Shown piece after piece: positions 41,371-49,046 of a stretch of 64,000 nt of DNA. The stretch comes from Lysobacter sp. yr284 (GTDB lineage: Bacteria; Pseudomonadota; Gammaproteobacteria; Xanthomonadales; Xanthomonadaceae): contig NZ_FNPT01000006.1 of the NCBI RefSeq assembly GCF_900107375.1, positions 186,001 to 250,000 of the forward strand. Reading direction: 5' to 3'. Below the pieces are notes generated by a model, which ran no database searches, was not told the origin of the DNA, and saw only the letters and a list, made by a program, of their open reading frames with translations. The translations under genes were made by a program, and so were the position numbers. How positions within the stretch are numbered: position 1 is the stretch's first letter; each line of letters begins with the position of its first letter.

Positions 41371-41760
41371 GTGGTTCTCCTTGAGCAGGCCGCGACGCGG
41401 CGTGGTTCGCGCTGTGGGCCGGCGGCGCGCGCACGAGCGCGACGTCCCTGCATTGCCAGCAATCGGGCCGCCTGAGGCCCTTATACGCGCCTTTGCGCGC
41501 AGCCGGGCGCGGCGTCGATCCCGCCGATCGGACGGGCCGCGACGACCGTGCGATGTGTAATTCAGCTGGATGAAAAGGCACTCGCCGAACGCGCGGTCCA
41601 TCGCGCAGCGGATGCGCGTTCGCCGTGTCGTCGCGCAGCGCGCAGCGATGGTGGCGAGGCGCCGGCCGGCCGGCGCCGACGATGCGGACGAAGGCGACGG
41701 CCGGCGACCATACCGCGGCGCAGCTTGTGGCTGTCGCCGCCGAACCACTACACTGCGCGC
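41371..41760. other. divergent promoter region, M23 peptidase and riboswitch operon
   Basis: 390 bases without a supportable gene between the M23 start codon and the cobalamin riboswitch. The part around 41545-41580 (GATGTGTAATTCAGCTGGATGAAAAGG) is AT-richer and may hold promoter elements; nothing further can be fixed by eye. Confidence 0.4.
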
Positions 41761-41957
41761 GCCACAGGTGTCCTGCCGCCCGCTCCAGCGAGCGCGCAGG
41801 GTGAAACGGGAAGCCGGTGCGGACGCGAGTCCCATTCCGGCACTGCCCCCGCAACGGTAGGCGAGACGACGCCGGCATCGGCCACTGCGCGAACGCGCGG
41901 GAAGGCGCCGGCGGGACGCATCCGCGTCGCTCGCGAGTCCGGAGACCGGCCTGTGGC
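41761..41957 (+). ncRNA. cobalamin riboswitch aptamer
   Basis: The sequence has every conserved block of the cobalamin riboswitch in order: GCCACAGGTG (P1 5' side), GGGAAGCCGGTG, CCGGCACTGCCCCCGCAACGG written in two overlapping parts (CCGGCACTGC and CCCCCGCAACGGT), CACTG, GGGAAGGCG, and the B12 box GAGTCCGGAGACCGGCC. The outer stem P1 is perfect: GCCACAGG (41761-41768) pairs with CCTGTGGC (41950-41957). It is on the plus strand, 174 bases before mmsA. Such RNAs bind adenosyl- or related cobalamins and usually lower expression of the gene downstream. In known cases they control B12 synthesis, uptake or B12-independent isoenzymes, so the valine-catabolic operon behind it is unusual. Confidence 0.97.
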
Positions 41958-42078
41958 GGACGCCGATGCGTCGGCTGCGGCATTGCCGCGGCCCGCGATG
42001 CGGCGTTCTCCTCGGGCGTTGCGGCGGGCGACCTGACGAGCGGATGCGGTGCGGCGCGCGTGCGCCCGCCTTTCGCCC

Positions 42079-42128
42079 GGTCTTCGTTCGCGCAGCGCCT
42101 GCCTTCGCGGGTGTGCGATCCGGAGACC
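42079..42128 (+). promoter_or_regulatory. putative translational switch at mmsA ribosome binding site
   Basis: The ribosome binding site CGGAGACC (42121-42128) can pair over eight positions, one of them G-U, with GGTCTTCG at 42079-42086. The same ten bases TCCGGAGACC occur in the B12 box (41938-41947) and at the ribosome binding site (42119-42128), so the GGTCTTCG strand could pair with either. GGCGGGCG (42023-42030) and CGCCCGCC (42063-42070), followed by TTTCG, may form a further stem. The switching model is inference from pairing alone. Confidence 0.5.
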
Positions 42129-42131
42129 AAC

Positions 42132-43655
42132 ATGAACGACATGCACGCAGTCGCGACCGACGTCGCGACGGTCAAGCTGCTGATCGACGGCGAGTTCGTC
42201 GAATCCTCCACTGCGCACTGGCGCGAGGTGGTCAATCCCGCCACCCAGGCCGTGCTCGCGCGCGTGCCGATGGCGACGCCGGCGGAGATCGACGCCGCCG
42301 TCGCCGCCGCGCAGCGCGCGTTCAAGACCTGGCGCAAGACGCCGATCGGCGCGCGCGCGCGGATCTTCCTCAAGTACCAGCAGCTGATCCGCGAGCACAT
42401 GGGCGAGCTGGCGGCGATCCTCACCGCCGAACAAGGCAAGACCCTGCCCGATGCGGAAGGCGATGTGTTCCGCGGCCTGGAAGTGGTCGAGCACGCCGCG
42501 GCGATCGGCAACCTGCAATTGGGCGAACTGGCCAACAACGTCGCCGGCGGCGTCGACACCTATACCCTGCTGCAGCCGCTGGGCGTGTGCGCCGGCATCA
42601 CCCCGTTCAATTTCCCGGCGATGATCCCGCTGTGGATGTTCCCGATGGCCATCGCCACCGGCAACACCTTCGTGCTCAAGCCCTCCGAGCAGGACCCGCT
42701 GGTGACCATGCGCCTGTGCGAGCTGGCGGTGCAGGCGGGCATTCCCAACGGCGTGCTCAACGTCGTCCACGGCGGCGAAGCGGCGGTCAACGCGATCTGC
42801 GACCACGCCGACATCAAGGCGGTGTCGTTCGTGGGATCGACCAAGGTCGGCACCCACGTCTACCAGCGCGCCTCGCTCGCCGGCAAGCGCGTGCAATGCA
42901 TGATGGGCGCGAAGAACCACGCCGTGGTGATGCCCGACGCGAACAAGGAACAGACCCTCAACGCGCTCGCCGGCGCCGCGTTCGGCGCGGCCGGGCAGCG
43001 CTGCATGGCGGCTTCGACCGCGGTGCTGGTCGGCGCGGCGAACGACTGGGTCGCCGACCTGGTGGCCAAGGCGAAGACGCTCAAGGTCAACGCCGGCACC
43101 GAGGCCGGCACCGACGTCGGCCCGGTGATCTCCTGCGCCGCGCGCGAGCGGGTGGAAGGCTTGATCGCTTCGGGCGTGGAGCAGGGCGCCACGCTCGAAC
43201 TCGACGGCCGCGCGCCGGCGGTGCCGGGCTTCGAGCGCGGCAACTTCGTCGGCCCGACGATCTTCTCCGCGGCCAAGCCCGGCATGCGCATCTACGACGA
43301 GGAAATCTTCGGCCCGGTGCTGGTGGTGCTCAGCGCGGACACGCTCGAGGACGCCATCGCCCTGGTCAACGCCAACCCCAACGGCAACGGCACCGCGATC
43401 TTCACCCAGTCCGGCGCGGCCGCGCGGCGTTTCCAGGAGGACATCGACGTCGGCCAGGTCGGCATCAACGTGCCGATCCCGGTGCCGGTGCCGCTGTTCT
43501 CCTTCAGCGGCTCGCGCGCGTCCAAGCTCGGCGACCTCGGCCCGTACGGCAAGCAGGCGGTGACCTTCTACACCCAGACCAAGACGGTCACCGCGCGCTG
43601 GTTCGACGACGACACGCTGGGCCACGGCGTCAACACCACGATCAGCCTCAAGTGA
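42132..43655 (+). CDS. mmsA: methylmalonate-semialdehyde dehydrogenase (CoA-acylating)
   Basis: A 507-residue aldehyde dehydrogenase of the CoA-acylating methylmalonate-semialdehyde type. The characteristic [18 protein letters not shown] block with Asn160, the FVGSTKVG cofactor loop, and catalytic Cys291 in AAGQRCMA are present. It turns methylmalonate semialdehyde, CoA and NAD+ into propionyl-CoA and CO2, the last step unique to valine catabolism; it also acts in thymine breakdown. The ATG at 42132 lies five bases after GGAGA. The frame stays open upstream to 41817, but this part is the riboswitch. It is the first of six overlapping genes. Confidence 0.95.
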
Positions 43656-44845
43656 TGGCCGCGGTCATGGACTGGCAGGTTCATCCGGCCGCGCCGACCG
43701 GACTCAGCGAAGAACAGGCGGCCTACCGCGAAGCCGCGCGCGATTTCGCCCGCGCCCAGCTCGCGCCGTACGCGGCGCAGTGGGACGCGCGCAGCGAGTT
43801 CCCGCGCGAGGCCATCGCCCAGGCCGGCGAACTGGGCTTCTGCGGGCTGTACGTGGACGAGGCCGCCGGCGGCTCCGGCCTGGCCCGGCTGGACGCGGCG
43901 ATCGTGTTCGAGGAACTGGCCGCGGCCGATCCGTCCACCGCGGCCTTCATCAGCATCCACAACATGGCCACCTGGATGTTCGCCGCGCACGCCGCCCCGG
44001 CGCTGCGCGCGCGCTGGGGCGCGGAGCTGGCCAGCGGGCGCCGGCTGGCTTCGTACTGCCTGACCGAGCCCGGCGCGGGTTCGGATGCGGCCTCGCTGCG
44101 CACGCGCGCGCGCCGCGACGGCGGCGACTACGTCATCGACGGCGCCAAGGCCTTCATCTCCGGCGCCGGCTCCACCGACCTGCTGGTGGTGATGGCGCGC
44201 ACCGGCGGCGACGGCGCGCGCGGCATCAGCGCGTTCGCGGTGCCGGCCGACGCGGCCGGCATCGTCTACGGGCGCAAGGAAGAAAAGATGGGCTGGAACA
44301 GCCAGCCCACCCGCGGCATCGTCTTCGACGGCGTGCGCGTGCCGGCGGACCACTTGCTCGGCGCGGAAGGCGACGGCTTCAAGATCGCGATGAAGGGCCT
44401 CGACGGCGGCCGCCTCAACATCGCCAGTTGCTCGCTCGGCGCGGCCCAGGGCGCGCTCGACGCGGCCCGGCGCTACATGGGCGAGCGCCGCCAGTTCGGC
44501 AAGAAGCTCGCCGAATTCCAGGCGCTGCAGTTCAAGCTGGCCGACATGGCCACCCAGCTGGTGGCGGCGCGGCAGATGGTCCACACCGCCGCGCGCAAGG
44601 TCGATGCCGGCTGCGCCGACGCCACGGTGTGGTGCGCGATGGCCAAGCGCTTCGCCACCGACGCGGGCTTCTCGATCTGCAACGAGGCGCTGCAGATCCA
44701 CGGCGGCTACGGCTACATCCGCGAATACCCCATCGAGCGGCTGATGCGCGATTGCCGCGTGCACCAGATCCTGGAAGGCACCAACGAAATCATGCGCGTG
44801 ATCATCGCGCGCCACCTGCTCAACAGCGAAGAGGAATTGCGATGA
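43655..44845 (+). CDS. acyl-CoA dehydrogenase (isobutyryl-CoA dehydrogenase)
   Basis: A 396-residue FAD enzyme with the acyl-CoA dehydrogenase layout: LTEPGAGSDAASLRTRA, the RRQFGKKLAEFQALQFKLADM helix, and the C-terminal QIHGGYGYIREYPIERLMRDCRVHQILEGTNEI with the family's catalytic Glu. In the valine pathway it converts isobutyryl-CoA to methacrylyl-CoA; the operon context makes this the best guess over short-chain acyl-CoA. The ATG overlaps the mmsA stop (TGATG). An ATG four codons later is an alternative. Confidence 0.92.
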   Translation: MAAVMDWQVHPAAPTGLSEEQAAYREAARDFARAQLAPYAAQWDARSEFPREAIAQAGELGFCGLYVDEAAGGSGLARLDAAIVFEELAAADPSTAAFISIHNMATWMFAAHAAPALRARWGAELASGRRLASYCLTEPGAGSDAASLRTRARRDGGDYVIDGAKAFISGAGSTDLLVVMARTGGDGARGISAFAVPADAAGIVYGRKEEKMGWNSQPTRGIVFDGVRVPADHLLGAEGDGFKIAMKGLDGGRLNIASCSLGAAQGALDAARRYMGERRQFGKKLAEFQALQFKLADMATQLVAARQMVHTAARKVDAGCADATVWCAMAKRFATDAGFSICNEALQIHGGYGYIREYPIERLMRDCRVHQILEGTNEIMRVIIARHLLNSEEELR

Positions 44846-45636
44846 GTTCGTCCGCCAAGACCTATGCGGGGCTGCAGCTGCGCATCGACGGCCACACCGC
44901 GGTGGTGACGTTGAGCAACCCGCCGGCCAACACCTGGACCCGCGGCAGCCTGGCCGCGCTGCGCGACCTGGTCCGCGACCTCGACGCCGACCGCGACGTC
45001 TACGCGCTGGTGATCGTCGGCGAAGGCGAGAAGTTCTTCAGCGCCGGCGCCGACCTCAAGCAGTTCGCCGGCGGCGACAAGGCGCTCGCGCGCGAGGCCG
45101 CGCGCCGCTTCGGCGAGGCGTTCGAGACGCTCAGCGCGTTCCGCGGCGTGTCGATCGCCGCGATCAACGGCTACGCCATGGGCGGCGGCCTGGAATGCGC
45201 GCTGGCCTGCGACCTACGCATCGTCGAGGAACAGGCGCAGCTGGCGCTGCCGGAGGCCACCGTCGGCCTGCTGCCGTGCGCCGGCGGCACCCAGAACCTG
45301 CCGCGGCTGGTCGGCGAGGGCTGGGCCAAGCGCATGATCCTGCTCGGCGAGCGCATCGACGCGGCGACCGCGCTGCGCATCGGCCTGGTCGAGGACGTGG
45401 CGCCCAAGGGCCAGGCGCTGGCGCGCGCGCTGGAGTGGGCCAAGCAGGCCGAAAAACAGAGCCCGACCAGCGTGGCCGCGTGCAAGGCGATGGTCCAGGC
45501 CACCCGCAGCCAGCCGCACGCCACCGCGCTGGTGCGCGAGCGCGAGGCCTTCGTCGACCTGTTCGACAGCGCCGACCAGGTCGAGGGCGTGGCCGCGTTC
45601 CTGGAAAAGCGCGCGCCGCAATGGAAGAACGCATGA
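44842..45636 (+). CDS. enoyl-CoA hydratase
   Basis: A 264-residue crotonase-fold enzyme. It shows FFSAGADLKQF (oxyanion hole), INGYAMGGGLECALACDLRI, and LPEATVGLLPCAGGTQNLPRLVG with the catalytic Glu position. In this operon it most likely hydrates methacrylyl-CoA to 3-hydroxyisobutyryl-CoA. The ATG overlaps the stop of the dehydrogenase gene (ATGA), giving coupled translation. Confidence 0.92.
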   Translation: MSSSAKTYAGLQLRIDGHTAVVTLSNPPANTWTRGSLAALRDLVRDLDADRDVYALVIVGEGEKFFSAGADLKQFAGGDKALAREAARRFGEAFETLSAFRGVSIAAINGYAMGGGLECALACDLRIVEEQAQLALPEATVGLLPCAGGTQNLPRLVGEGWAKRMILLGERIDAATALRIGLVEDVAPKGQALARALEWAKQAEKQSPTSVAACKAMVQATRSQPHATALVREREAFVDLFDSADQVEGVAAFLEKRAPQWKNA

Positions 45637-46838
45637 ACGCGCACCTCAGCGACGCGAACGCGCAGGCCGCGGCGCAGGCCGCGCCGGTATTGTTCGAAGA
45701 GCGCCAGGGCGCGCACGGCCGCATCGGCGTCGCCACGCTCAATGCGCCGGCCACGCTCAACGGCCTTTCGCTGGAGATGGCGCGCCTGCTCGACGCGCAG
45801 TTGCAGCACTGGGCGCAAGACCCGGCGCTGGCGATGGTGTGGCTGCAGGGCGCGGGCGAGAAGGCCTTCTGCGCCGGCGGCGACCTGCACGGGCTGTACC
45901 GCGGCATGCGCGAGCGGCAGGCGCGCGGCCGCTGGGACGGCGACGACTTCGCCGACCCGCGCGGCAACGTCCACGCCGAGGCGTTCTTCGAAACCGAATA
46001 CCGCCTGGACTACCGCATCCACACCTATCCCAAGCCGCTGCTGTGCTGGGGCCACGGCATCGTCATGGGCGGCGGCATCGGCCTGATGGCCGGGGCCAGC
46101 CACCGCGTGGTCAGCGAGCGCTCGAAGCTGGCGTTCCCGGAGATCACCGTCGGCCTGTACCCCGATGTCGGCGGCAGCTGGCTGCTGGCGCGCGCGCCCG
46201 CGCGCGCCGGCCTGTTCCTGGCGTTGACCGGCGCGCCGCTCAACGCCGGCGACGCGATCCGCGCGCGGCTGGCCGATCACCACCTGCCCGAGGCCGCGCG
46301 CGCGCAGGCGCTGGACGCGGCGCTCGCCGCGCCGTGGAGCTTCGACGCCGCGCGCGACCGCGCGGCCTTGACGGTGCTGCTGCAGAGCCTGGCCGAACCG
46401 GCGCCGGCGGGACCGCTGCAACAGCACGCCGACGCCGTCGCCGCGCTGTGCGCCGGCGATTCGCTGGAGGAGATCGCGGCCCGCATCGAGGCGATCGACG
46501 CCGACGACGCCTGGCTGCAGAACGCGCGCAAGACCTTCGCCGCCGGCGCGCCCGGCTCGGCGCGGCTGGGCTTCGAGCTGCAACGCCGCGCCGCGTCGTT
46601 GTCGCTTGCCGATACCTTCCGCCTGGAGTACTGGGTTTCGCTGCACTGCGCCGCGCACGGCGATTTCGCCGAGGGCATCCGCGCGCTGCTGATCGACAAG
46701 GACCGCAATCCGCGCTGGAACCCGGCGACGCTGGCGCAAGCCACGGCGCACTGGGCCGACGCCTTCTTCCACGTTCCCGACCCCGCGCGGCCGCATCCGC
46801 TGGCCGACCTGGGCGCCGCCACGGAGCCGCGCGCATGA
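45633..46838 (+). CDS. 3-hydroxyisobutyryl-CoA hydrolase
   Basis: A 401-residue member of the crotonase superfamily of the longer HIBCH type: [59 protein letters not shown], and a C-terminal extension with DKDRNPRW typical of the hydrolases. It frees 3-hydroxyisobutyrate from CoA, preventing loss of reactive methacrylyl-CoA. The ATG overlaps the hydratase stop (ATGA). The order matches the pathway order. Confidence 0.93.
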
Positions 46839-47734
46839 GCCGCATCGCCTTCATCGGACTGGGCCACATGGGCGGCCCGATGGCCGCCAACCTGCTCAAG
46901 GCCGGGCACGAACTGCAGGTGTTCGACCTGGTGCCGGCCGCGGTCGAGGCCGCGGTCGCGCTCGGCGCGCGCGCGGCCGCCAGCGCGGCCGAGGCGGTGG
47001 ACGGCGCGCAGGTCGCGATCTCGATGCTGCCGGCCAGCCGCCATGTCGAAGGGCTGTACCTCGGCGAGGACGGCCTGCTGGCGCGGCTGGCGCCGGACGC
47101 GCTGGCGATAGACTGCAGCACCATCGCCCCGGCCAGCGCGCAGAAGGTCGCCGCTGCGGCCGCCGCGCGCGGCGTGGCGATGATCGACGCGCCGGTGTCC
47201 GGCGGCACCGCCGGCGCCGCCGCCGGCACCCTGACCTTCATCGTCGGCGGCGACGCCGCAGCGCTGGAGCGCGCGCGCCCACTGCTGCAGGCGATGGGCC
47301 GCAACGTCTTCCACATGGGCGCCAGCGGCGCCGGCCAGGTCGCCAAGCTGTGCAACAACATGGCCCTGGGCGTGATCATGGCCGCGACCGGCGAAGCGCT
47401 CGCGCTCGGCGCCGCGCACGGCCTGGACCCGGCCGCGCTGTCGCAGATGATGGCGGTCAGCACCGGCCGCAGCTGGGCCACCGAGGTGTGCAACCCGTGG
47501 CCGGGCGTGCTGGAGAACGCGCCGGCCTCGCGCGGCTACCGCGGCGGGTTCGGCAGCGACCTGATGCTCAAGGACCTGGGCCTGGCCGCCGAGGCGGCGA
47601 TGGGCGTGGGCTCGCCGATCCCGCTGGGCGAACTGGCGCGCAACCTCTACGCGCTCAACGCCCGCGCCGGCCGCGGCGGGCTGGACTTCTCCAGCGTGAT
47701 CCAGCTGCTGGCGCGCCAGGACGCCGACGCGTGA
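46835..47734 (+). CDS. mmsB: 3-hydroxyisobutyrate dehydrogenase
   Basis: A 299-residue beta-hydroxyacid dehydrogenase. The N-terminus has the NAD+ motif [20 protein letters not shown]; then come [22 protein letters not shown] (substrate binding) and [15 protein letters not shown] with the catalytic Lys; the tail is KDLGLA. It oxidises 3-hydroxyisobutyrate to methylmalonate semialdehyde, the substrate of MmsA, closing the pathway encoded here. The ATG overlaps the hydrolase stop (ATGA). Confidence 0.95.
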
Positions 47735-48423
47735 ACGCGCCGCGGCCGCCGCTGAGCCTGCCCGACGGCGCCCAGCGGCTGCTGCTGCACTCGTGCTGCG
47801 CGCCGTGCTCGGGCGAGGTCATGGAAGCGCTGCTGGCCGCGGGCATCGACTACACGATCTTCTTCTACAACCCCAACATCCACCCGGTGAAGGAATACGA
47901 GCTGCGCAAGGACGAGAACGTGCGCTTCGCCGACCAGCACGGCGTGCCCTTCGTCGATGCCGACTACGACACCGACAACTGGTTCGCCCGCGCCCGCGGC
48001 ATGGAGGACGAACCCGAGCGCGGCATCCGCTGCACCATGTGTTTCGACATGCGCTTCGAGCGCACCGCGCTGTACGCGCACGAGCACGGCTTCGCCGCGA
48101 TCAGCAGCTCGCTGGGGATCTCGCGCTGGAAGAACATGGAGCAGATCAACGATTGCGGCCACCGCGCCGCGGCGCGTTATCCGGGGCTGGCGTACTGGGA
48201 CTACAACTGGCGCAAGGGCGGCGGCGCCCAGCGCATGGTCGAGATCAGCAAGCGCGAGCGCTTCTACCAGCAGGAGTACTGCGGCTGCGTGTATTCGCTG
48301 CGCGACACCAATCGCCAGCGCAAGGCGCAGGGGCGCGGGCGGATCAAGATCGGCCTGGTCTATTACGGCGACGAGGCCGCGCCGGCCGCAGCGGTCGGCC
48401 CCATCGATCAGACGCAAACCTGA
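47731..48423 (+). CDS. queH: epoxyqueuosine reductase QueH
   Basis: A 230-residue protein of the QueH (DUF208) family with its cysteines in place: [11 protein letters not shown] (Cys22, Cys23, Cys26), [12 protein letters not shown] (Cys101, Cys104) and YCGCVYSL (Cys184, Cys186). QueH binds an iron-sulfur cluster and metal and reduces epoxyqueuosine to queuosine in tRNA, replacing the cobalamin-dependent QueG. It starts with GTG overlapping the mmsB stop (GTGA), so it is part of the riboswitch-led operon. It has no link to valine breakdown, but B12 control of a B12-independent isoenzyme is a well-known logic. Confidence 0.93.
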
Positions 48424-48448: not shown

Positions 48449-48512
48449 GCGCTATTGACCCGGGCGCCGCGCGCGCTTGAAATCGCGGTTCCGCCGCCGC
48501 GCAGGAGCGCCC

Positions 48513-49046
48513 ATGCCGCCGCCGATCCGGGTCGAACTGGTCCCGCACGACCCGCGCTGGGCGCAGGCGGCGCGCGAACGCGCGTCGGCGCTGGCCGCGG
48601 CGATCGGGCCGGCGCTGGCCGCGGTGCACCACATCGGCTCGACCGCGATCGCCGGCATCCATGCCAAACCGGTGCTCGACCTGATGCCGGTGGTGCGCGA
48701 CTTGGCCGCGCTCGATGCGCGTCGCGGCGAGGTCGAGGCGCTGGGGTACCGCTGGTGGGGCGAGTACGGCCTGCCGGGTCGGCGCTATTGCACGCTCAGC
48801 GATGCGGCCGGCGAGCGGCGGCTGGTGCATGCGCATTGCTATGAGGCGGAATCGGCGCAGGCCGGGCGCCATCTGGCGTTCCGCGACTATCTGCGCGCGC
48901 ATGCGCGCGTCGCCGCCGAGTACGACGCGGTCAAGTTGCGTTGCCGCGCGCGCCATCCCGAGGATTCGCACGCCTACAGCGATTGCAAGCACGCGTGGAT
49001 ACAGCGCGCGCAAGCGCGGGCGCTGCGTTGGCGGGCCGGAGAATGA
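48513..49046 (+). CDS. GrpB family protein
   Basis: A 177-residue protein of the GrpB/UPF0157 group, which has a nucleotidyltransferase-like fold. The pattern VELVPHDPRWAQAARERA, HHIGSTAIAGIHAKPVLDLMPVV and GLPGRRYCTL is typical, with two Asp of the fold near DLMPVV. The ATG at 48513 follows GGAG; an upstream in-frame ATG at 48477 lacks such a site. Molecular function in bacteria is not settled. Confidence 0.88.
   Translation: MPPPIRVELVPHDPRWAQAARERASALAAAIGPALAAVHHIGSTAIAGIHAKPVLDLMPVVRDLAALDARRGEVEALGYRWWGEYGLPGRRYCTLSDAAGERRLVHAHCYEAESAQAGRHLAFRDYLRAHARVAAEYDAVKLRCRARHPEDSHAYSDCKHAWIQRAQARALRWRAGE

What the first reader, a model, noticed from the sequence alone, without database searches (positions are those of the whole stretch)
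41761..48423. Cobalamin riboswitch heading a valine-catabolism operon
A canonical cobalamin aptamer with a perfect P1 stem precedes mmsA and five more tightly overlapping genes of valine degradation and queH. Known targets of this RNA class are B12 synthesis/uptake and B12-independent isoenzymes such as metE; I know of no described case on mmsA. Valine breakdown gives propionyl-CoA, whose entry to the TCA cycle via methylmalonyl-CoA needs B12, so the organism may tune branched-chain catabolism by B12 supply.
Basis: partly seen in the sequence, partly recalled or inferred. Interest (0 to 1): 0.82.

Follow-up and report, generated by a model that had tools for sequence, protein, structure and literature searches.

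The report
B12 switch choosing valine breakdown route
A vitamin-B12-sensing RNA sits in front of the genes for a B12-free way of breaking down valine, in bacteria that also own a B12-dependent alternative, so the cell probably picks its route, and a B12-free tRNA-modifying enzyme, according to how much B12 it has.

Summary
In detail: a cobalamin riboswitch (91.7 bits, gathering 31.5) precedes mmsA, four more valine-route genes and queH. The proposed reason does not: the genome's only mutase of the methylmalonyl-CoA kind is a fused isobutyryl-CoA mutase (IcmF), and prpB is present. IcmF (B12-dependent) and the mmsA route (B12-free) compete for isobutyryl-CoA from valine; QueH is the B12-free substitute for QueG, also present. 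Best reading: B12 switches off B12-free substitutes, as for metE and nrdAB, targets of two of the other four riboswitches here. In the family, 19 of 20 riboswitch-led mmsA operons lie in IcmF genomes, against 1 of 59 operons without it. Of 97 family loci, 20 have the riboswitch and none of these a divergent ScfR regulator; 73 of the other 77 have ScfR. In an IcmF-less Luteibacter MAG most of the aptamer is missing while its flanks remain. Limits: the family's riboswitch operons form one clade; among 19 genomes reached through named loci, only 2 of 7 with IcmF have the riboswitch; no expression data. A riboswitch on mmsA is already predicted in Streptomyces griseus (2022), without this explanation.

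The parts
41725..41754 (+). Candidate promoter: TTGTGG (41725-41730), 18 nt, TACACT (41749-41754)
   Evidence: Read from the sequence. TAxACT begins 9 of the 10 riboswitch-led mmsA leaders printed for the family and L014; the tenth, L104, is printed from one base later (ACACT); L052 does not have it. The consensus scan found no sigma-70 site at its threshold, so this is a suggestion.
41749..41968 (+). Cobalamin riboswitch aptamer (RF00174); P1 41761-41768/41950-41957; B12 box 41881-41887
   Evidence: cmscan 91.7 bits; genome search finds the same locus
42008..42033 (+). Conserved element CTCCTCGGGCGTTGCGGCGGGCGACC, probably P13/L13 that kisses loop L5
   Evidence: GTTGCGG[CT]GGGC is in 21 of 21 aligned riboswitch-led mmsA leaders; L052 was not aligned. 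The kissing-loop role is recalled, not tested.
42079..42128 (+). Predicted hairpin that covers the mmsA Shine-Dalgarno: GGTCTTCG (42079-42086) with CGGAGACC (42121-42128)
   Evidence: ViennaRNA pairing probability of the SD 1.0 in this leader, only 0.28-0.34 in the four g7 leaders folded from the aptamer's end. Across 18 related leaders the combined shuffle p is 0.02, 2 leaders have no such helix, and RNAalifold on 12 leaders does not recover it: suggestive only.
42132..43655 (+). mmsA, CoA-acylating methylmalonate-semialdehyde dehydrogenase
   Evidence: TIGR01722, 730 bits, cut-off 448.5
43658..44845 (+). acyl-CoA dehydrogenase (isobutyryl-CoA dehydrogenase by context)
   Evidence: Pfam Acyl-CoA_dh domains; no NCBIfam cut-off met; substrate inferred
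44845..45636 (+). enoyl-CoA hydratase
   Evidence: NF006566 (subfamily), 442 bits, cut-off 286
45636..46838 (+). 3-hydroxyisobutyryl-CoA hydrolase
   Evidence: NF004127 (subfamily), 325 bits, cut-off 274
46838..47734 (+). mmsB, 3-hydroxyisobutyrate dehydrogenase
   Evidence: TIGR01692, 398 bits, cut-off 291.6
47734..48423 (+). queH, B12-independent epoxyqueuosine reductase
   Evidence: PF02677, 221 bits; no NCBIfam match

Best explanation
The RNA is a cobalamin riboswitch that works as an OFF switch on a set of B12-independent substitutes. When adenosylcobalamin is plentiful it folds around B12 and keeps mmsA-queH low; isobutyryl-CoA from valine is then isomerised by B12-dependent IcmF to butyryl-CoA, and epoxyqueuosine in tRNA is reduced by B12-dependent QueG. 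When B12 is scarce the operon is expressed; isobutyryl-CoA is oxidised through methacrylyl-CoA and 3-hydroxyisobutyrate to propionyl-CoA (removed, we infer, by the methylcitrate cycle), and QueH makes queuosine. Shown here: the aptamer, the operon, IcmF, QueG and prpB in the same genome, and that the riboswitch accompanies IcmF across relatives. Inferred: ligand binding, direction of control (OFF), metabolic flux, and the output mechanism (occlusion of the mmsA start site or Rho, since no intrinsic terminator was found).
For: (1) Same genome: IcmF (NF045497, 1688 bits, cut-off 1500) with the Phe and Gln that mark isobutyryl-CoA mutases (residue roles recalled; alignment to PDB 4xc6), no other mutase of this superfamily, and QueG (494 bits). 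(2) The other four cobalamin riboswitches of the genome lead btuB twice, metE, and nrdA with an nrdB-like gene. (3) In 99 family genomes mmsA (19) and IcmF (83 at E <= 0.001, two of them weak) avoid each other: both in 5, where independence would give about 16. (4) Exactly those 5 have the riboswitch before mmsA; none of the 14 with mmsA and no IcmF has it. (5) A prediction noted beforehand: with riboswitch status as finally established, 58 of 60 newly tested family genomes fit (14 with both, 44 with neither, 1 and 1 against), and so do L014, L052 and L013. Total for the 79 of 105 mmsA genomes tested for IcmF: 19 riboswitch+IcmF+, 1 riboswitch+IcmF-, 1 riboswitch-IcmF+, 58 neither. Of 19 genomes reached through named loci, none of the 12 without IcmF has the riboswitch before mmsA. 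(6) Decay where IcmF is absent: sister operons L014 (riboswitch, IcmF) and L013 (a MAG without IcmF) differ by 217 nt of L014 that stand against 11 nt in L013 and hold all but the first 27 nt of the Rfam match, while both flanks align; in G313 (no IcmF) the B12 box is CCGCCG instead of CCACTG. (7) Regulators exclude each other: a divergent ScfR gene within 400 nt of mmsA in 0 of 20 riboswitch loci and 73 of 77 others. (8) Other lineages: Undibacterium L052 (109.4 bits, IcmF present) and Streptomyces griseus in print. (9) queH is riboswitch-led elsewhere: directly in G071, G098 and L018, and behind a MetE-like gene in G001; the one QueH genome of 99 without QueG (G018) does not have queH riboswitch-led.
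Against: No expression or binding data. In the family all riboswitch-led mmsA operons sit in one clade, so the 79 genomes are not independent trials. Exceptions in the family: G203 (IcmF, no riboswitch), G313 (riboswitch, no IcmF). Of 19 genomes reached through named loci, 7 have IcmF and only 2 of these (L014, L052) have the riboswitch; L031, L054, L057, L074 and L082 do not. The IcmF absence in L013 is from a MAG of unstated completeness. The output hairpin is weakly supported. That IcmF carries valine carbon in these bacteria is inferred from its family.
Confidence: 0.73

Rival explanations
1. queH is the real target: the riboswitch is kept only to switch the B12-independent QueH against QueG, and the valine genes ride along in its operon.
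For: queH ends the operon in 19 of the 20 riboswitch-led family mmsA loci; QueG coexists with QueH in 11 of 12 QueH genomes of the 99; queH is led directly by a cobalamin riboswitch in G071, G098 and L018; G313 keeps a (degenerate) riboswitch with queH but without IcmF.
Against: The riboswitch stands before mmsA operons in which no queH was found in the fetched stretch: G283, L014 and L052. The operon has queH but no riboswitch in G342 and L013, which lack IcmF, although QueG was not tested in those two. QueH is the last of six genes.
Confidence: 0.12
2. One reading: B12 matters because propionyl-CoA from valine must pass through B12-dependent methylmalonyl-CoA mutase, so the operon is matched to B12 supply.
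For: The pathway does end in propionyl-CoA (families; established knowledge).
Against: The only PF01642 gene of the genome is IcmF. prpB is present in 80 of 80 genomes tested, with or without the riboswitch. The reading would call for an ON switch, unlike the OFF-type control expected for the genome's other targets (metE, nrdAB, btuB).
Confidence: 0.04
3. Lineage accident: the riboswitch was captured once with this operon type, which spread between genomes; its match with IcmF is shared ancestry and it may do little.
For: In the operon tree all 20 family riboswitch-led operons and L014 fall in one clade of 26 (support 0.985). Among the genomes reached through named loci, 5 of 7 with IcmF lack the riboswitch.
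Against: Within that clade the aptamer is lost or decayed in lineages without IcmF (L013, G313, and the subclade with G342/G373/G377, whose member G203 however has IcmF) and has an intact core in the 19 family genomes and L014 that have IcmF; an unrelated operon (L052) shows the same pairing.
Confidence: 0.11

Closest known systems
Cobalamin riboswitch on metE (B12-independent methionine synthase) in genomes with metH
   Same: B12-sensing leader before the B12-independent member of a pair; this genome carries a metE riboswitch (metH was not searched). Logic tested for MetE/MetH in PMC9600662 (passages read).
   Different: Here the switched thing is a five-enzyme catabolic route plus queH, and the B12-dependent partner is one enzyme with a different product, not an isozyme.
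Cobalamin riboswitch on class I ribonucleotide reductase nrdAB
   Same: Control of a B12-independent alternative; an nrdA/nrdB-like pair behind a cobalamin riboswitch is also in this genome.
   Different: Different pathway; single function.
Predicted cobalamin riboswitch on the methylmalonate-semialdehyde dehydrogenase gene SGR_RS05925 of Streptomyces griseus (PMC8914203)
   Same: Same first gene and pathway; premature termination read as repression (passages read).
   Different: Another phylum and a termination-type output. The paper names no B12-dependent partner in the passages read: 'isobutyryl' occurs 0 times in its main text, and it says no cobalamin studies exist on valine degradation enzymes.
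ScfR-type short-chain fatty acyl-CoA regulators (PF09856)
   Same: The gene lies divergently beside the same mmsA operon in 73 of 77 riboswitch-less family loci, so it probably controls it.
   Different: Protein regulator; a TGC[GA]AA-N3-TGCGAA motif precedes mmsA in 44 of those 77 loci; both are absent from all 20 riboswitch loci.

Membership tests
Cobalamin riboswitch (RF00174) | Covariance-model score over the curated gathering score, full length | tested here: met
   91.7 bits vs 31.5, model 1-189
Cobalamin riboswitch (RF00174) | B12 box and closed P1 stem | tested here: met
   GCCACTG at 41881-41887 and an 8-bp perfect P1
Cobalamin riboswitch (RF00174) | Conserved at the same place in relatives | tested here: met
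   20 of 97 scanned family mmsA loci, plus L014 and L052
Cobalamin riboswitch (RF00174) | Binds a corrinoid | not testable with these tools
   needs in-line probing or a reporter
Riboswitch control of a B12-independent substitute (metE/metH kind) | The controlled genes do not need B12 | tested here: met
   families of the six products; B12-independence follows from established knowledge of these families
Riboswitch control of a B12-independent substitute (metE/metH kind) | A B12-dependent counterpart in the same genome | tested here: met
   IcmF and QueG; IcmF in 19 of 20 riboswitch-led family genomes
Riboswitch control of a B12-independent substitute (metE/metH kind) | Control absent when the counterpart is absent | tested here: met
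   58 of 59 IcmF-less family genomes have no riboswitch before mmsA; the one with it, G313, has a mutated B12 box
Riboswitch control of a B12-independent substitute (metE/metH kind) | Control present whenever both are present | tested here: inconclusive
   19 of 20 in the family (G203 fails); but only 2 of 7 IcmF genomes reached through named loci
Riboswitch control of a B12-independent substitute (metE/metH kind) | Expression falls with B12 | not testable with these tools
   no expression data at hand
   only PF01642 gene is IcmF

The most novel reading that the evidence does not exclude
A B12 riboswitch acts as the points on a metabolic fork: it decides whether valine carbon leaves isobutyryl-CoA through the B12-dependent mutase (to butyryl-CoA) or through the whole B12-free mmsA route (to propionyl-CoA), together with a QueG/QueH swap in tRNA modification. 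It replaced the usual acyl-CoA-responsive ScfR regulator in bacteria that own both routes, is discarded when IcmF is lost, and arose separately in Xanthomonadales, Undibacterium and Streptomyces.
Probability: 0.58. Interest if true: 0.76.

Novelty: new variant of a known kind. Interest (0 to 1): 0.68.

Why it matters
It extends B12-riboswitch control from single isozymes to a choice between two whole catabolic routes with different products, gives the riboswitch-mmsA pairing noted without explanation in Streptomyces a testable reason, and predicts a physiological role for IcmF in valine breakdown. It also joins B12 supply to tRNA queuosine through QueH. All of it can be tested in cultured bacteria.

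Tried and rejected
Methylmalonyl-CoA mutase logic: rejected. queH as the sole reason: weakened by riboswitch operons without queH and queH operons without riboswitch. An exact B12-box search (GCCACTG) missed true riboswitches; a looser pattern missed G313 (found); so a covariance model was built and the fetched mmsA loci were scanned by it or by Rfam, with a clear gap between 88 bits and 28.6 bits. Intrinsic terminator after the aptamer: none on the + strand. Start-site hairpin: RNAalifold on 12 leaders found only 3 pairs, none with the Shine-Dalgarno; a helix test against shuffled leader stretches gave combined p 0.02 over 18 related leaders, 2 of them without any such helix; kept as a suggestion. 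The plasmid search with MmsA found 100 records (10 listed); none was examined for a riboswitch. 8 of 105 mmsA loci were not fetched and 26 of 105 mmsA genomes were not tested for IcmF. The regulator tally did not look at position; one search repeated it with position and orientation (73 of 77 stands; L057's homologue turned out not to be adjacent).
Full report
1. Observation. At gathering thresholds Rfam reports a single RNA in the 64-kb window, a full-length cobalamin riboswitch at 41749-41968 (+), 91.7 bits against 31.5. Six genes follow on the same strand from 42132 to 48423: mmsA, acyl-CoA dehydrogenase, enoyl-CoA hydratase, 3-hydroxyisobutyryl-CoA hydrolase, mmsB and queH.

2. The genome around it. 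The window lies in a 6.25-Mb genome that has five cobalamin riboswitches. The other four lead two btuB-type B12 receptors, metE, and nrdA (TIGR02506 over its cut-off) followed by an nrdB-like gene (best NCBIfam match below its cut-off): B12 uptake and two textbook kinds of B12-independent isozyme. The only gene of the methylmalonyl-CoA mutase superfamily (PF01642) is a fused isobutyryl-CoA mutase, IcmF, 1688 bits against a curated cut-off of 1500. Aligned to the solved IcmF 4xc6 it keeps the Phe of RMFAGEG and the Gln of DQ-QN, where methylmalonyl-CoA mutases have Tyr and Arg (residue identities recalled, not from a call). QueG, the B12-dependent epoxyqueuosine reductase, is also present, 494 bits, and so is prpB, 420 bits.

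3. Reading. Valine breakdown gives isobutyryl-CoA (established knowledge). From there a B12-dependent step (IcmF, to butyryl-CoA) and a B12-free route (this operon's five enzymes, to propionyl-CoA) compete. QueH, the last gene, can replace QueG (PMC5372724, passages read); PMC6461909 (passages read) names it as an alternative to the cobamide-dependent epoxyqueuosine reductase. The operon is therefore a set of B12-independent substitutes, like metE and nrdAB.

4. Distribution. In 99 genomes drawn from the family, mmsA (tblastn E <= 1e-150) is in 19 and IcmF (E <= 0.001; G041 and G080 only weakly) in 83, but both in only 5 (G000, G090, G048, G058, G085); independence would give about 16. Two genomes have neither, at 72% and 81% completeness. 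Precisely those 5 have the riboswitch before mmsA. A full riboswitch list for the 14 genomes with mmsA but no IcmF shows none there. A wider search found mmsA in 105 of 395 family genomes. Regions of 97 of them were examined, and 20 have the riboswitch before mmsA. Before testing IcmF in new genomes the prediction was written down. One search then found IcmF in 14 of 15 new riboswitch-led family genomes and in 1 of 45 riboswitch-less ones. Total: 19 riboswitch+IcmF+, 1 riboswitch+IcmF- (G313), 1 riboswitch-IcmF+ (G203), 58 neither, of 79 tested. Of the 19 genomes reached through named loci, mostly outside the family, 7 have IcmF over the cut-off; the riboswitch stands before mmsA in 2 of these 7 (Luteibacter L014 and Undibacterium L052, 109.4 bits each) and in 0 of the other 12, Luteibacter L013 among them.

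5. How independent is this? A tree of five operon proteins places the family's riboswitch-led operons and L014 in one clade of 26 (support 0.985) with five riboswitch-less members; L052 stands apart. So in the family the riboswitch was probably gained once and then kept or lost, and the raw table overstates the evidence. The losses are informative. L013 and L014 are sisters (0.998): L013, a MAG of unstated completeness, shows no IcmF, and its leader matches L014 on both sides of 217 nt of L014 (11 nt in L013) that hold all but the first 27 nt of the aptamer match. G313 lacks IcmF and has CCGCCG in place of CCACTG in the B12 box. G342, G373 and G377 lack IcmF and the riboswitch; their closest riboswitch-led relative G369 has both. 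G203, in that same subclade, is the exception.

6. The other regulator. In riboswitch-less family loci a gene for a ScfR-type regulator (PF09856 in the three tested by Pfam) lies divergently within 400 nt of mmsA in 73 of 77 cases; in the 20 riboswitch loci it is never there. A TGC[GA]AA-N3-TGCGAA motif lies within 400 nt before mmsA in 44 of the 77 and in 0 of the 20. Of the exceptional IcmF genomes without riboswitch, G203, L031 and L054 have the divergent ScfR; L057 has a homologue some 6 kb downstream, not beside mmsA; L074 and L082 were not scanned for it.

7. queH. QueH is in 12 of 99 genomes. In 8 it lies downstream of a cobalamin riboswitch (five in mmsA operons; directly in G071 and G098; behind a MetE-like gene, PF01717 at 42 bits, in G001), and all 8 have QueG. 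Of the other 4, G017 and G092 have QueG (G092 in two pieces) and no riboswitch near queH; G030 has QueG, but its contig ends about 150 nt upstream of the queH match, so nothing can be said; G018 has no QueG and its nearby riboswitch lies downstream of queH. queH thus looks like a genuine target, but not the reason for the riboswitch on mmsA: G283, L014 and L052 have the riboswitch and no queH found nearby, while G342 and L013 have queH and no riboswitch.

8. Mechanism of output. After the aptamer, 21 of 21 aligned leaders share GTTGCGG[CT]GGGC, probably the P13/L13 partner of loop L5 (role recalled), and 17 of 21 have CGCGGGT shortly before the Shine-Dalgarno. In this genome the Shine-Dalgarno CGGAGACC can pair with GGTCTTCG upstream. 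Support across leaders is weak (combined p 0.02; not recovered by RNAalifold). No terminator was found on the + strand. Control at translation start, or through Rho, is an inference; Streptomyces griseus shows premature termination (PMC8914203, passages read).

9. Literature. Searches 'queH + cobalamin riboswitch', 'mmsA + riboswitch + cobalamin', 'queH + queG + riboswitch', 'isobutyryl-CoA mutase + riboswitch', 'cobalamin riboswitch + valine degradation', 'B12 riboswitch + B12-independent + isozyme + comparative genomics', 'IcmF + isobutyryl-CoA mutase + valine', 'methylmalonate-semialdehyde dehydrogenase + cobalamin + riboswitch' and 'epoxyqueuosine reductase + riboswitch + cobalamin-dependent + QueH' were run in an open-access library. 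The only riboswitch-mmsA case I recognised is the S. griseus prediction. Passages of PMC11494915, PMC7857532 and PMC6759758 and of PMC9600662, PMC2667541 and PMC2211319 showed no such case and no link of a riboswitch to isobutyryl-CoA mutase; the other listed papers were not read for this. The classic surveys of the B12 element (PMC1370473, PMC373277) are not held, and subscription papers were not searched, so a printed link cannot be excluded.

10. Verdict. Confidence 0.73 that B12 represses this operon because B12-dependent IcmF (and QueG) can take over.

Noticed in passing
L154:8165-9493, L160:8112-9500, L136:8106-9470 and equivalents: 73 of 77 riboswitch-less mmsA operons of the family have a divergent ScfR regulator gene, 44 of 77 also or instead a TGC[GA]AA-N3-TGCGAA motif; neither occurs in the 20 riboswitch loci.
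   Followed up: yes
L187:2544-4702 (G001:C34): A cobalamin riboswitch leads an operon of a MetE-like (PF01717, 42 bits) gene and queH: two B12-independent functions under one riboswitch.
   Followed up: partly
L120, L129, L018: In three genomes (L018 a Stenotrophomonas MAG, the others of a genus inferred to be Stenotrophomonas) a cobalamin riboswitch directly precedes queH.
   Followed up: partly
G000:C10:54671-62417 (L010): The metE and nrdA riboswitches of this genome lie about 7 kb apart on the same strand.
   Followed up: no
L111 (G048:C13:416427-416952): QueH is found in two overlapping pieces in different frames, so queH may be broken there, while the riboswitch-led operon and IcmF are present.
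   Followed up: no
L101 (G283): A riboswitch-led mmsA operon with no queH found behind mmsB, in a genome with IcmF.
   Followed up: no
L138:9015-9165, L126, L163, L021: Weak matches (25-29 bits) of the riboswitch model about 1 kb upstream of mmsA in Xanthomonas-type loci; probably chance, possibly an old remnant.
   Followed up: no
L008:8939-11377: Downstream of icmF: a protein with a zeta-toxin domain and an XVIPCD tail (type IV secretion effector kind).
   Followed up: no
L074:17114-17191: Fluoride riboswitch in a Ralstonia locus fetched with mmsA.
   Followed up: no
window 48477-49046: A GrpB-domain gene follows queH on the same strand after a short gap; whether it belongs to the operon was not examined.
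   Followed up: no
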